Virus record (IMG/VR): IMGVR_UViG_3300048837_000646
Span: 1 to 29,056 of that record
Reading direction: 5' to 3' (one strand)
DNA length: 29,056 nucleotides
DNA from: a virus
The position numbers and the translations under genes were made by a program. This document shows positions 16,007 through 20,069 of this stretch, one piece after another. Every line of letters starts with the position of its first letter. The first letter of the stretch is position 1. Under the pieces are notes generated by a model that was given only the letters and a program-made list of their open reading frames with translations, was not told the DNA's origin and did no database searches.

Positions 16007-16858
16007 ATGGCCGTCACCAACTTCGTGCCCGACATCTGGTCGGCGCGGATCCTCAGCAACCTCAGCAAGTCCCACGTCGCGGGCGCGATCTGCAACCGCG
16101 ACTACGAGGGCGACACGACCTCGGGCGACTCGGTGAAGATCACCTCCATCGTCGACCCGACGATCACCGCCTACACCGGCGCGGACATGACCGCCGAGGA
16201 CATCGACGACGCCACCCGCTCGCTGCTCCTGGACCAGAAGCAGTCGTTCAACTTCTTCCTCGACGACGTCGAGCGGGCGCAGTCGGTCAACGGCGGCTCG
16301 GTGCTGCAGGAGGCCATCGACCGCGCCTCCTACGGCCTGGCCAACGTCCTGGACGCCTACGTCCTCAACGCCCTGGCCACCGACGCCTCGGCCTCGAACC
16401 CGGACCACAAGGTCGCGGAGGCGACCATCTCCACCTCGGCGGGCGCCTACGACGCCCTCGTCGACTGGGGCGTCCTGCTCGACACCGCCGACGTCCCGCA
16501 GTTCGACCGCTGGGCGGTCGTCACGCCGGCGTTCTACGGCAAGATCCTCAAGGACAGCCGCTTCGTCGGCGCCGGTGACGCGGCCTCGGCCGAGATCCGG
16601 GCCAACGGCTACGTCGGCTCCGCCGCGGGCTTCCGCATCTACAAGAGCAACAACCTCCCCGCCGGCCCCGGTGCCGGTGCGGGCACGGCGATGCTCGCGG
16701 GCTCCCGCATGGCCTGCACCCTGGCCGAGCAGGTCCGCTCGGTCGAGGCCTACCGCGTCGAGAAGAAGTTCGCGGACGGCGTCAAGGGCCTGCACGTCTA
16801 CGGCGCGAAGGTGACCCGCCCGACCTGCGTGGTCACGGCGGACGTCATCGTCAGCTAG
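16007..16858 (+). CDS. major capsid protein
   Basis: This 283-residue coat protein is preceded by a strong AAAAGGAG ribosome site. The opening (TNFVPDIWSARILSNLSKSHV) and the GDTTSGDSVKITSI block are typical of actinophage coats of the P22-like/HK97-fold group. Later features are the QKQSFNFFLDDVERAQ segment, the WAVVTPAFYGKILKD strand and the C-terminal FADGVKGLHVYGAKVTRP strand that closes the domain. It forms the icosahedral shell around the scaffold. Hairpins on both sides suggest a separately stabilised, abundant mRNA. Confidence 0.93.
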   Translation: MAVTNFVPDIWSARILSNLSKSHVAGAICNRDYEGDTTSGDSVKITSIVDPTITAYTGADMTAEDIDDATRSLLLDQKQSFNFFLDDVERAQSVNGGSVLQEAIDRASYGLANVLDAYVLNALATDASASNPDHKVAEATISTSAGAYDALVDWGVLLDTADVPQFDRWAVVTPAFYGKILKDSRFVGAGDAASAEIRANGYVGSAAGFRIYKSNNLPAGPGAGAGTAMLAGSRMACTLAEQVRSVEAYRVEKKFADGVKGLHVYGAKVTRPTCVVTADVIVS

Positions 16859-16926: not shown

Positions 16927-17076
16927 GTGTCCAACGACTTCCCCGGCGGTCTCAAGCCGGACTCTGCGAGCGACTTCTACCTGCTCGCGATCCTCGAGGA
17001 GCTGCGTGCGATCCGCGCGGCGCTCGAGCCCAAGCCTGCGCCCCCTGCGCGCAAGTCGACGTCCCCGAGGAGGTGA
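16927..17076 (+). CDS. small protein after the capsid gene, 49 aa
   Basis: GTG 16927 follows GGAAGG. The peptide has a short disordered opening (SNDFPGGLKPDS), one amphipathic helix (DFYLLAILEELRAIRAAL) and a Pro/Lys/Arg-rich tail. Such one-helix proteins are often found after capsid genes, but I cannot assign a function. It could anchor or trimerise the fiber encoded next. Its stop (AGGAGGTGA) doubles as the ribosome site of the fiber gene. Confidence 0.65.
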   Translation: MSNDFPGGLKPDSASDFYLLAILEELRAIRAALEPKPAPPARKSTSPRR

Positions 17077-17080
17077 CCTC

Positions 17081-18670
17081 GTGACGCTGCCCACCGACTA
17101 CGTCGGCTCGGACGACACCGAGGACGTCGACCACGCGGGGATGCACAACGACGTCAACGCGGCGGTGAACGCGGTCAACGCCGAGCTGGGCGCCAACCCG
17201 TCCGGCGCCTCGCCGACGGTCGCGGCCCGCCTGGACTCGCTCGACACGACCGTGGCCGGCAAGGAGGCCGCGGGCACCGCTGCCACCGCTGTGGCCGCGC
17301 ACGCTGCCGCTTCCGACCCGCACGGTGACCGGGCCTACGCGGATGCCGCTCTGGCGACGAAGGCCGACCTGGTCGGCGGCGTCTTGCCGACGTCGCAGCT
17401 GCCCGCACTGGCGGTGACCGAGCATCTGGGCTCGGTGGCGAACCAGTCGGCGATGCTCGCGCTGTCGGGGCAGAAGGGCGACTGGTGCATCCGGTCGGAC
17501 GTGGGCCAGGTCTACGTCATCACGGGTGCGGACCCGTCGCTGCTGGCGTCGTGGACGGCGCTGGCGTACCCGACGTCGCCGGTGTCGTCGGTGAACGGCG
17601 AGACGGGCGTCGTGGTCCTCAGTCCGGGCGATGTGGGCGCGGACCCGGCTGGCACCGCTGCGTCCCTCGTCGATGACCTGTCGGGCGTCACGGACGCGGC
17701 GACGGCGCGGACGAACCTGGGCCTCGGCTCGGCTGCGGTCCTGTCCACGTCCGACATTGACGAGCGTGCCCGCGACGCGGTGGGCTCGGCGCTGGTCGCT
17801 GGCACTGGCATGACGGTGACGCCGAACGATGGCGCGGACACAATCACGGTGGCGACCTCGGCGATCCTGCCTACGGTCGTCGACGCGAAGGGTGACCTGC
17901 TCGTCGGCACGGCGGCGGACACGGTGGGCCGTCTGGCGGTTGGCACGAACGGGCATGTGCTGACGGCGGATTCGGCCGAGGCGTCGGGTGTGAAGTGGGC
18001 GGCGCCGTCCGCTGGCGGGTCGCTGGACGTGCGCGACGAGGGTACGTCACTGACGAGCGCGGCGACGCGGCTGAACTTCGTCGGCCGGGGTGTGTCTCTG
18101 GCAGAGCCGGTGGTGGACCAGATCGAGGTCCAGGTCGACACGCCGAACGGCCTCCCATCAGTGGGCAACAGTCTCTGGCCGCTGCACGTCGCGGGCTCAG
18201 ACCTGAGCACGGTCAACGGGGACATGTACTGCGTGAAGATCGTCGTTCCTCGCTCGGCTTCGTTCGACCAGTACACGGCTCACGTGTCGGCGGGATCTGC
18301 TGGCGCCACACTTCGCTTCGCCCTGTACCAAGACTCTGCAGGCCCGGCGCGCCTGGTCGCTGGTTCCGAGGTCTCGGGGGTCAGCGCGACCAGCGGGGGC
18401 GTGAAGTTCGGGACGATGGGCGCGGCCGTGACCCTGTCGGCCGGGATCTACTGGATCGCCATCGCCCCGCAGGGTGGGGCACCGACGCTGACCGCGTTCG
18501 GCGCACCCGTGAACGGCACCCAGGACCCCGGCCTGACCGGCTTTGTCATCTCGGCGGCCCTGCATTTCAAGCACGCCAGCGCCCAGACCGGCGCCTTCCC
18601 GTCGTCGTTCGGCTTCTCCTACACCAACCCGCTCACGGCTCCCCGAGTCGCGCTGAACAGGTCGGCATGA
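17081..18670 (+). CDS. fiber-like structural protein in the head module
   Basis: This 529-residue protein starts at GTG 17081 just after AGGAGG. Its make-up is that of phage fibers: an N-terminal HAGMHNDVNAAVNAVNAEL segment, an Ala-rich stem with a coiled-coil look (50-100), beta-type repeats common in fibers (SSVNGETGVVVLSPGDVGA at 169-187, GDLLVGTAADTVGRLAVGTN at 271-290, GHVLTADSAEASGVKWAAPS at 291-310), and a C-terminal beta-rich head (about 360-529) likely to bind a ligand. Codons here end in G, T or A far more often than in neighbours, suggesting separate ancestry. It lies between the capsid and head-tail connector genes, so it may be a capsid-mounted fiber. A misplaced tail fiber is the alternative. 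Confidence 0.8.
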   Translation: MTLPTDYVGSDDTEDVDHAGMHNDVNAAVNAVNAELGANPSGASPTVAARLDSLDTTVAGKEAAGTAATAVAAHAAASDPHGDRAYADAALATKADLVGGVLPTSQLPALAVTEHLGSVANQSAMLALSGQKGDWCIRSDVGQVYVITGADPSLLASWTALAYPTSPVSSVNGETGVVVLSPGDVGADPAGTAASLVDDLSGVTDAATARTNLGLGSAAVLSTSDIDERARDAVGSALVAGTGMTVTPNDGADTITVATSAILPTVVDAKGDLLVGTAADTVGRLAVGTNGHVLTADSAEASGVKWAAPSAGGSLDVRDEGTSLTSAATRLNFVGRGVSLAEPVVDQIEVQVDTPNGLPSVGNSLWPLHVAGSDLSTVNGDMYCVKIVVPRSASFDQYTAHVSAGSAGATLRFALYQDSAGPARLVAGSEVSGVSATSGGVKFGTMGAAVTLSAGIYWIAIAPQGGAPTLTAFGAPVNGTQDPGLTGFVISAALHFKHASAQTGAFPSSFGFSYTNPLTAPRVALNRSA

Positions 18671-19071
18671 TGATCGAGAACTACGCCGATGGCGGGCGCC
18701 TCATCGAACGCTGGGACGCTGACGGGTACGCCCGGTTCGACCAGAACGGCGTCGCTGTCCAGACGCGACGTCTCACGGACCAGGAGGCGGCGCTCGTAGC
18801 AGCGATCTCAGCTGAGAGCGAGCGGATCGCACTGCCGGCCGCTCACCGCGAGGCCCTCGCATCCGCCCGCGCCATCCTGCTCGACTACCGCTTCGGCGCA
18901 CCCGGCACACCGTCGTTCCCCGAGGTGCTCTCACCCGTCCAGACCGCCGTGCTCGACTACCGCGACAGCGGCATCCGCGACGCCGAGTGCGACGAGCACA
19001 TCATGTGGATCAACGCCCGCGTCAACGAGATCAACGCCGCCGCGCTCTACGGCGCAGGGGTGCTCAAGTGA
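18667..19071 (+). CDS. fiber-associated protein, 134 aa
   Basis: ATG 18667 overlaps the fiber stop (ATGA); a second ATG follows at 18670. The product has a small beta-like start (YADGGRLIERWDADGYARFDQNG), then helical segments (LVAAISAESERIALPAAHREALASARAIL) and a conserved-looking end (INARVNEINAAALYG). Coupling to the fiber gene suggests a chaperone or an attached adaptor for the fiber. That role is inference; the family is not recognised. Confidence 0.65.
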   Translation: MMIENYADGGRLIERWDADGYARFDQNGVAVQTRRLTDQEAALVAAISAESERIALPAAHREALASARAILLDYRFGAPGTPSFPEVLSPVQTAVLDYRDSGIRDAECDEHIMWINARVNEINAAALYGAGVLK

Positions 19072-19298
19072 GCGGCTACACCTGGGCGTGGCTCGCCTGG
19101 GGTGCCGCGTTCCTCGTCATCGAGGCCAAGGCCATCCGCGACGGCGCCGACGGCAAGAGCGGCGGGACCCTCTCCGAGCACCTGCGCGCCTGGCTCGGCA
19201 CCACCAAGAAGTCCAGCCGAGGGCACCGCATCGTCGGCATCACCGGGCTGCTGCTGCTCGTCGCCTGGTTCGTGCCGCACATCATCACCGAGGGGTGA
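19068..19298 (+). CDS. two-TM membrane protein, 76 aa (holin-like)
   Basis: GTG 19068 overlaps the previous stop. Hydrophobic helices lie at about residues 4-20 (YTWAWLAWGAAFLVIEA) and 54-71 (IVGITGLLLLVAWFVPHI), separated by a charged loop (KKSSRGHR). Size and topology resemble small class II holins, but no endolysin gene is nearby, and such proteins also occur in fiber gene blocks without a lysis role. The call is limited to membrane protein. Confidence 0.7.
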   Translation: MSGYTWAWLAWGAAFLVIEAKAIRDGADGKSGGTLSEHLRAWLGTTKKSSRGHRIVGITGLLLLVAWFVPHIITEG

Positions 19299-19301
19299 GC
19301 C

Positions 19302-19478
19302 GTGGGACGACCGCTCAACGCTGCAGGCGTCCCGCTCAACCTCGCCGGACTCACGCTCAACGGGCCAGCACCCGACGCGGGCGGACCCACCACCGAGCGG
19401 CCCTACACCACCGTCACCGCCTACGCGCCCGGCGACACCGTGCCCCGCCCGTTCACCACCATCACGCCGAACCCGTAG
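19302..19478 (+). CDS. Pro/Thr-rich short protein, 58 aa
   Basis: GTG 19302 starts three bases after the previous stop. The product is unusual: LN-rich pseudo-repeats at the start (PLNAAGVPLNLAGLTLNG), then proline and threonine up to the C-terminus (TTERPYTTVTAYAPGDTVPRP). It looks extended or virion-associated rather than globular and may be a decoration or linker peptide. No family recognised. Confidence 0.55.
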   Translation: MGRPLNAAGVPLNLAGLTLNGPAPDAGGPTTERPYTTVTAYAPGDTVPRPFTTITPNP

Positions 19479-19487
19479 GAGCGAGCC

Positions 19488-20069
19488 GTGGCCGACCTGT
19501 TCACGCTCTCCGAGCTCGCCTCCTACCTCCAGCGCGACCTGGACACCTCCTCCGCGACGCTCGCCCGCGACATGGCCCACGGCGTCGTCCGCGACCACTG
19601 CCGCCAGGAGATCACCACCGCGACCGTCACCCGCCGCCTCCCCGTCGTCTACGACCGTCGCGGCTGGTACGTCCAGATCCCCGAGCAGAACCTCACCGCC
19701 GTCACCACCGTCGTCGTCAACGGCACCGCCGTCACCACCCACACCGTCGACCTGCTCAACCGCCAGGTCCGACTCGTGGACGGCGTGCCCACCGACGACG
19801 CGGACGAGGACGTCGAGGACCAGGCCGTCGTCACCTACACCGCCGGGTACTCCACCGTCCCCGGGAACGTGAAGGCCGTCGCACTGGCCGTCGCCGGCCG
19901 CATCTACGACAACCCCCAGGGCCTGCGCTCCCGCCAGATCGACGACTACTCCGAGACCCGCGCCGGTGACGACGACGACCTCGCCGGGGTGTCGCTACTG
20001 CCCACCGAGGAGCGCCGCCTGCGCCGCTACCGCCTCGGCGCGGTCGGATCGGTGCCTGTCCGTGGCTGA
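19488..20069 (+). CDS. head-to-tail adaptor
   Basis: This 193-residue protein starts at GTG 19488 after GGAGCGAG. The N-terminal LFTLSELASYLQRDLDTSSATLAR and the following helices, with the late VPGNVKAVALAVAGRIYDNP, are typical of the gp6/gp15-like connector proteins that form a ring under the portal. It ends with a basic helix (EERRLRRYRLG). It begins the standard connector series (adaptor, stopper, completion protein, tail terminator) and overlaps the next gene by eight bases. Confidence 0.82.
   Translation: MADLFTLSELASYLQRDLDTSSATLARDMAHGVVRDHCRQEITTATVTRRLPVVYDRRGWYVQIPEQNLTAVTTVVVNGTAVTTHTVDLLNRQVRLVDGVPTDDADEDVEDQAVVTYTAGYSTVPGNVKAVALAVAGRIYDNPQGLRSRQIDDYSETRAGDDDDLAGVSLLPTEERRLRRYRLGAVGSVPVRG

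What the first reader, a model, noticed from the sequence alone, without database searches (positions are those of the whole stretch)
16927..19478. Fiber, partner protein, membrane protein and Pro-rich peptide inserted in the head module
A 529-residue fiber-like protein and four small genes sit between the capsid gene and the head-tail adaptor, where connector genes would normally follow. This suggests a capsid-attached fiber or decoration system rather than a tail fiber. The two-TM protein within the same coupled block is an odd companion and could be part of the same system.
Basis: partly seen in the sequence, partly recalled or inferred. Interest (0 to 1): 0.7.

Follow-up and report, generated by a model that had tools for sequence, protein, structure and literature searches.

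The report
Portable phage fiber-and-chaperone cassette
This phage carries, wedged between its head gene and the head-tail joint genes, a movable set of genes for a host-binding fiber, its probable folding helper and a small membrane protein, and the same set turns up in unrelated phages at other positions, so the fiber is probably not tied to the head shell.

Summary
Between the major capsid gene (16007-16858) and the phrog_442 head-tail adaptor (19488-20069) lie p49, a 529-aa fiber, p134, a small membrane protein (p76, phrog_3555) and a proline-rich p58. Relatives with this capsid normally run capsid to adaptor directly.

Fiber, p134 and p76 are a portable cassette. It is complete in all 7 contigs (window included) with sequence beyond p134. 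It sits at four kinds of genome position: capsid-adaptor, upstream of terminase, upstream of portal, and the tail/lysis region. One fiber N-terminus (85-95% identical) accompanies capsid proteins of different families, so attachment to one particular capsid protein is unlikely.

Inside the cassette, the fiber tip plus the p134 N-terminus form one block without DNA similarity to relatives (18139-18840), flanked by arms 85-95% identical. p134N identity tracks tip identity (3 of 720 permutations); p134C does not. I read p134 as the tip's cognate chaperone or cap, and the whole as an exchangeable host-recognition module.

Where the fiber sits on the virion (neck, tail tip or head) is not resolved. 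New variant of a known kind; interest moderate.

The parts
16007..16858 (+). major capsid protein (left neighbour, not part of the cassette)
   Evidence: phrog_267 E 8.6e-63, PF25209
16927..17076 (+). p49, 49 aa; no family; travels with the fiber N-terminus in L047/L073
   Evidence: tblastn 63-65% identity in L047/L073; DNA identity to L047 begins at about 17000, inside p49
17081..18670 (+). fiber, 529 aa: N-terminal anchor (about residues 1-75), shaft, collar (to about residue 350), variable tip (about 351-529)
   Evidence: PHROG tail/virion structural hits in the shaft, phrog_25864 in the tip; mosaic blocks 17000-17323, 17337-17740, 17642-18139
18139..18840 (+). block without DNA similarity to L047, L073, L048 or L049: fiber tip plus the N-terminal part (about 58 residues) of p134
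   Evidence: blastn and sliding identity
18667..19071 (+). p134, inferred tip chaperone or cap: variable N-terminal beta part, constant C-terminal helical part
   Evidence: AF2 pLDDT 86.7, four N-terminal strands then three helices; N part tracks tip identity, C part does not
18840..19064 (+). right homology arm: p134 C-terminal part, 95% DNA identity to the otherwise unrelated L049
19068..19298 (+). p76, small membrane protein of phrog_3555 (phiC31 gp29 family)
   Evidence: phrog_3555 E 8.9e-17; hydropathy; alignment A2
19302..19478 (+). p58, proline-rich; 98% identical in L073; position equivalents in L049 (71 aa) and L008 (42 aa) are not similar in sequence
19488..20069 (+). head-tail adaptor (right neighbour)
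   Evidence: phrog_442 E 8.7e-24; 100% aa identity to the second adaptor of L073

Best explanation
The block is an exchangeable host-recognition cassette. The 529-aa protein is a (probably trimeric) fiber with a replaceable receptor-binding tip. p134 is its cognate tip chaperone or cap: its N-terminal beta part contacts the tip and is exchanged with it, while its helical C-terminal part is constant. p76 is a small accessory membrane protein that rides with the cassette, most likely holin-like or otherwise acting at the host membrane. The cassette spreads between unrelated phages by recombination in conserved arms and lies here at the seam between head and tail modules. Shown: the gene order, the recurrence of the trio, the sharp homology blocks, the relation of tip and p134N identities. 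Inferred: trimer, receptor binding, chaperone action, p76 function. The fiber is probably a neck (collar) or tail appendage rather than one bound to a specific capsid protein.
For: (1) p134 lies directly downstream of a fiber gene in 8 of 8 contigs that hold it (window, L047, L049, L050, L048, L067, L073, L090); a p76-like membrane protein follows in 7 of the 7 with sequence beyond p134, L047 being cut there. (2) DNA blocks: 17000-17323 94% to L047, 17337-17740 92% to L048, 17642-18139 85-86% to L047/L073/L049, none between 18139 and 18840, then 95% to L049 and 96% to L073 from 18840 (boundaries). (3) Window against L073 and L049: tip 25-31% identical, p134N 30-34%, p134C 93-95%. Mantel over 6 cassettes: tip~p134N r 0.64, reached by 3 of 720 permutations; tip~p134C r -0.14, 440 of 720. 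(4) The two cassettes with other tips (L067, L090) have a short p134 N-terminus of 35 and 29 residues, too short for the beta part. (5) Capsids that accompany the cassette belong to different families. (6) Published precedent: fiber plus cognate chaperone shared by distantly related Alteromonas phages, the chaperone having strands that pair with the fiber head and a helical body (PMC10579305: abstract, outline and passages read).
Against: p134 matches no known chaperone family (Pfam and PHROGs scans; fold searches gave no clear match). Most cassette contigs come from metagenomes with neighbouring IMG numbers (3300048xxx), so the sample is narrow and related. The Mantel test has only 6 cassettes and identities near background. 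The tip model is poor (pLDDT 48.6). Receptor binding was not tested.
Confidence: 0.7

Rival explanations
1. Capsid-attached head fiber or decoration, in the manner of phi29 p8.5, whose product decorates the capsid.
For: Position directly behind the capsid gene. phi29 lists the head fiber among its capsid genes and carries 55 head fibers (passages of PMC11476376). One shaft match is to a PHROG filed under head and packaging (phrog_2824). Weak top Foldseek match of the low-confidence tip model to a chain of a cyanophage A4 capsid entry.
Against: The same anchor occurs with unrelated capsid proteins (L047/L073: SU10-type). In L073 an adaptor gene stands between capsid and cassette. Other cassette members lie in tail, terminase or portal neighbourhoods. 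An equally good shaft match is a tail family (phrog_26941). The tip model is unreliable and its matches are ties in the second look.
Confidence: 0.18
2. Ordinary tail-tip receptor-binding fiber whose gene happens to lie in the head module.
For: In L048 the cassette sits behind tail genes, an amidase-like gene and a 121-aa gene of phrog_1084. In the L049 record the stretch behind the tape measure shows no other long fiber by gene length (families not scanned there). Tip relatives in Arthrobacter phages lie in or next to the tail/lysis region.
Against: Different N-termini are used in L048, L067 and L090 than in the head-module cases, which hints at a different anchor. The window has its own tail-tip genes up to its cut end.
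Confidence: 0.37
3. The block is a set of unrelated morons collected at a permissive spot, p76 and p58 having nothing to do with the fiber.
For: phrog_3555 proteins occur without a fiber in Streptomyces phages and in 3 of 394 genomes in surroundings without evident phage genes. Glycosyltransferase-like genes sit beside the adaptor in L006/L007. p76 does not follow the tip: 96% identical in L073 despite a 25% identical tip.
Against: Fiber, p134 and p76-like gene recur together in 7 of 7 contigs at four kinds of position.
Confidence: 0.2

Closest known systems
Tail fiber plus cognate chaperone host-recognition module of Alteromonas phages A5/V22 (PMC10579305)
   Same: Fiber followed by a chaperone, shared by distantly related phages; chaperone with beta strands and a helical body
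   Different: No sequence comparison with their chaperones was made; here the cassette also carries a membrane protein, lies between capsid and adaptor, and the chaperone-like gene is split into a tip-linked and a constant part
Neck passage structure of lactococcal 936/TP901-1 siphophages (PMC6669499)
   Same: Siphophage fiber with a near-constant N-terminus and variable C-terminal classes; proposed at the tail-capsid connector/portal
   Different: NPS N-terminus resembles BppU; no such match here; no companion chaperone or membrane protein was mentioned in the passages I read
Anabaena phage A-1(L) neck fiber gp82-gp81-gp80 (PMC10966104)
   Same: gp80 is a weak tblastn match to the tip domain (27.7% identity, E 1e-3) and is described as carrying a distal carbohydrate-binding module
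   Different: Myophage; three-protein bead chain; genes far from the other structural genes
phi29 head fiber p8.5 (PMC11476376)
   Same: Fiber gene among the capsid genes
   Different: No match to it in the scans; capsid-lattice attachment not supported here
phiC31 gp29 (phrog_3555)
   Same: p76 is a full-length relative (42-46% identity); in one phiC31 record the depositors call it a putative lysis gene of the holin family
   Different: phiC31 gp29 stands behind a tRNA and before an HNH gene, with no fiber beside it

Membership tests
Fiber with cognate tip chaperone | Chaperone gene directly downstream of the fiber | tested here: met
   p134 in 8 of 8 contigs holding it
Fiber with cognate tip chaperone | Chaperone contact region co-varies with the fiber tip | tested here: met
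   Mantel 3 of 720 for p134N, 440 of 720 for p134C; small sample of 6
Fiber with cognate tip chaperone | Sequence member of a known fiber-assembly family (such as Caudo_TAP, name recalled) | tested here: not met
   Pfam scan of p134 gave only SsfX3_N at E 0.18; PHROGs only unknown families at E 0.008-0.011
Fiber with cognate tip chaperone | Promotes folding of the fiber | not testable with these tools
   needs co-expression
Head fiber (phi29 p8.5 type) | Decorates the capsid lattice | not testable with these tools
   needs cryo-EM
Head fiber (phi29 p8.5 type) | Anchor specific to its capsid protein | tested here: not met
   same N-terminus (85-95%) with phrog_267 and phrog_1328 capsids
Neck passage structure | BppU-like N-terminal domain | tested here: inconclusive
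   no Pfam or PHROG match in the first 26 residues; no structure predicted for this part
Neck passage structure | Carbohydrate-binding tip | tested here: inconclusive
   low-confidence beta-sandwich model; CBM-like matches tie with unrelated folds
phrog_3555 (phiC31 gp29) | Profile match over the full length | tested here: met
   E 8.9e-17, residues 1-76

The most novel reading that the evidence does not exclude
The flanks of the head-tail adaptor gene are a docking site for fiber modules, and these fibers form a neck collar: a cassette of anchor (p49 plus fiber N-terminus), swappable tip with split chaperone, and membrane protein that works on heads built from unrelated capsid proteins because it binds the adaptor ring and not the shell. 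In support: the head-module cases (window, L049/L050, L008, L073) have a phrog_442 adaptor directly downstream of the block (tested for window, L049, L008; in L073 by 100% identity to the window's), and L105 has a fiber with the same tip family (phrog_25864) directly behind its adaptor gene.
Probability: 0.35. Interest if true: 0.65.

Novelty: new variant of a known kind. Interest (0 to 1): 0.48.

Why it matters
It shows natural mixing of one host-recognition cassette across phages with unrelated heads and different genome positions, with natural junctions that mark the tip and the part of the helper that goes with it. It warns against inferring virion position from gene position, and it gives a testable case of possible neck fibers in actinobacterial-type siphophages, about which I found little in the searches made (listings only except for the papers named).

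Tried and rejected
Capsid-specific anchoring was tested through the capsid families and dropped. A site-specific inversion was considered because of the sharp boundaries at 18139 and 18840; I only looked at the aligned boundary sequences, saw no obvious site, and ran no repeat search. p134 fold: no clear match in BFVD or PDB by Foldseek, only helical-bundle ties in the second look. Tip model: pLDDT 48.6; matches (cyanophage A4 capsid chain, CBMs, Douge gp20, Bxb1 tail tip) are ties and carry little weight; no PDB sequence match to the whole fiber, and for the tip profile only an antibody chain at E 0.007. I found no paper on the A4 capsid entry. tblastn of p134 in the phage collection and of the window fiber N-terminus found nothing; the L049 N-terminus gave one unannotated record. 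p134 was not found in genome contigs. phrog_25864 was found in 0 of 8 and 0 of 394 genomes, and the control did not ring either, so this is no evidence of absence. One PHROG query (L193:1-300) was ill-chosen and says nothing. I did not identify the p49 start in L073. The gene calls in loci come from my own simple scoring script, which failed on the 50% GC loci; there I read ORF listing.

Full report
What is there. The window is a whole 29,056-base IMG/VR virus record, not necessarily a complete genome. It runs through terminase, portal, protease, scaffold, capsid, the five-gene block, adaptor and further connector genes, tube, tape measure and two tail-tip genes, and is cut in the next one (portal to adaptor are named by profile, the terminase and the genes beyond the adaptor by my reading of order and length). 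The five genes of the finding are real and tightly packed; fiber, p134 and p76 overlap by a few bases.

Is it an insertion? The capsid is of family phrog_267. In relatives the adaptor follows at once or after one to three small genes: L006/L007, Shauna1, AGM4 and most actinobacterial prophage loci read. By a home-made adaptor profile, 22 of the 23 capsid loci (of 122) in which an adaptor was found have it within about 1.1 kb; L008 has 3.9 kb and carries a different fiber with a GDSL-lipase domain. Several of these loci seeded the profile, and 99 loci were uninformative.

A portable cassette. Searches with the fiber, p134 and p76 in IMG/VR led to the same trio elsewhere. Window and L049/L050: between capsid and adaptor, with capsids phrog_267 and phrog_2263 (L050 was read only from its tblastn hits). 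L073 (and L047, cut at its end): capsid of SU10 type, a first adaptor, a small reverse-strand helix-turn-helix gene (PF12728), then p49, fiber, p134, p76, p58 and a second adaptor 100% identical to the window's. L067: collagen-containing fiber with an Mtd_N start, a 110-aa p134 relative, p76-like gene, upstream of terminase. L048: behind tail and amidase-like genes. L090: upstream of portal (terminase, portal and amidase in L067, L048 and L090 named by reading). p134 follows the fiber in 8 of 8 contigs; the membrane protein follows in 7 of 7 with sequence there. L067 and L090 are about 50% GC.

Mosaic structure. Blastn shows blocks with sharp ends. The p49 end plus fiber N-terminus is 94% identical to L047; part of the shaft is 92% identical to L048; the collar is 85-86% identical to L047, L073 and L049; then nothing from 18139 to 18840; then 95% to L049 (to 19064) and 96% to L073 (to 22022, where L073 ends). 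So the fiber tip and the first part of p134 lie in one block without DNA similarity between two conserved arms. Protein identities agree: tip 22-45%, p134N 19-38%, p134C 60-95% between distinct cassettes with this tip type. Over six cassettes p134N identity tracks tip identity (3 of 720 permutations), p134C does not (440 of 720). The two cassettes with other tips have p134 N-termini of only 29 and 35 residues. p134 is predicted with good confidence as four N-terminal strands plus three helices, which fits a tip-contacting beta part on a constant helical body. The DNA boundary at 18840 (about residue 58) falls inside the first helix (38-73).

Where is the fiber? The N-terminal 60 residues are 85-95% identical between the window and L073/L047, whose capsid proteins show no profile relation to the window's (hhalign probability 0.1) and belong to different families. 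A second, related N-terminus is shared by L049 and L008, again with different capsids. L048, L067 and L090, which lie outside the capsid-adaptor position, use other N-termini. So N-terminus and context go together in this small set; one counterexample is L074, where an N-terminus with the same motif lies behind lysis-type genes. What the head-module cases share is an adaptor of phrog_442 type directly behind the block. In L105 a 955-aa protein with the same tip family (phrog_25864) lies between adaptor and the next connector-like gene; its adaptor matches phrog_137 and a related family, and in L104 other genes sit at that place. Annotated phages Kithara and Pepe25 also have fiber-type or esterase genes next to the adaptor. 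This makes a neck fiber attractive but unproven. In the L049 record no other long fiber is seen by gene length behind the tape measure before the lysis-type genes, which would fit a fiber that is needed for adsorption, at whichever place. I therefore leave neck and tail about equal, and head behind.

The membrane protein. p76 is a phrog_3555 protein, related to phiC31 gp29, once labelled a putative holin-family lysis gene by its depositors. It is not tip-specific (96% identical in L073). Relatives also occur in 3 of 394 genomes of the class searched, in surroundings without evident phage genes. An accessory role at the membrane, perhaps in lysis, is the most I would say.

Known relatives. Sharing of fiber plus cognate chaperone between distantly related phages is published (PMC10579305; abstract, outline and passages read). 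Neck fibers with binding modules are published for lactococcal siphophages (PMC6669499, passages) and for A-1(L) (PMC10966104, passages), whose gp80 is a weak match to the tip. Head fibers among capsid genes are known from phi29 (PMC11476376, passages). I therefore rate this a new variant of a known kind. What I did not meet in the searches made (mostly listings) is the position at the capsid-adaptor seam, the split of the chaperone-like gene into a tip-linked and a constant part, and the constant membrane companion.

Noticed in passing
L073:5055-8917: Two head-tail adaptor genes in one phage, one on each side of the fiber cassette; the second is 100% identical (aa) to the window's. Looks like a head/tail module recombination joint.
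   Followed up: partly
L006:6774-10265, L007:3915-8078: A run of glycosyltransferase-like genes (named by reading) directly behind the adaptor gene, another insertion at the head-tail seam.
   Followed up: no
L049:5104-5625: HNH-endonuclease-like gene (by reading) between capsid and fiber cassette; could have mediated the insertion.
   Followed up: no
window 19302-19478; L049:7989-8204; L008:5340-5468; L074:8678-8890: Small proteins with short repeats (such as PLNAAG-VPLNLAG-LTLNG, TWDNAQ-PWDSAR-TWDG) at similar places before adaptor or baseplate-type genes; unrelated in sequence but alike in pattern.
   Followed up: no
L105:7396-10263: 955-aa protein with the window's tip family (phrog_25864, E 7e-6) inserted behind the adaptor; the neighbouring head module in L104 carries different genes there.
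   Followed up: partly
L049:8201-9034: phrog_442 adaptor of 277 aa, longer than the window's 193 aa, apparently by an N-terminal extension of about 90 residues.
   Followed up: no
L190, L191, L192 (G384, G346, G361): phrog_3555 membrane proteins in bacterial chromosomes without evident phage genes around.
   Followed up: partly
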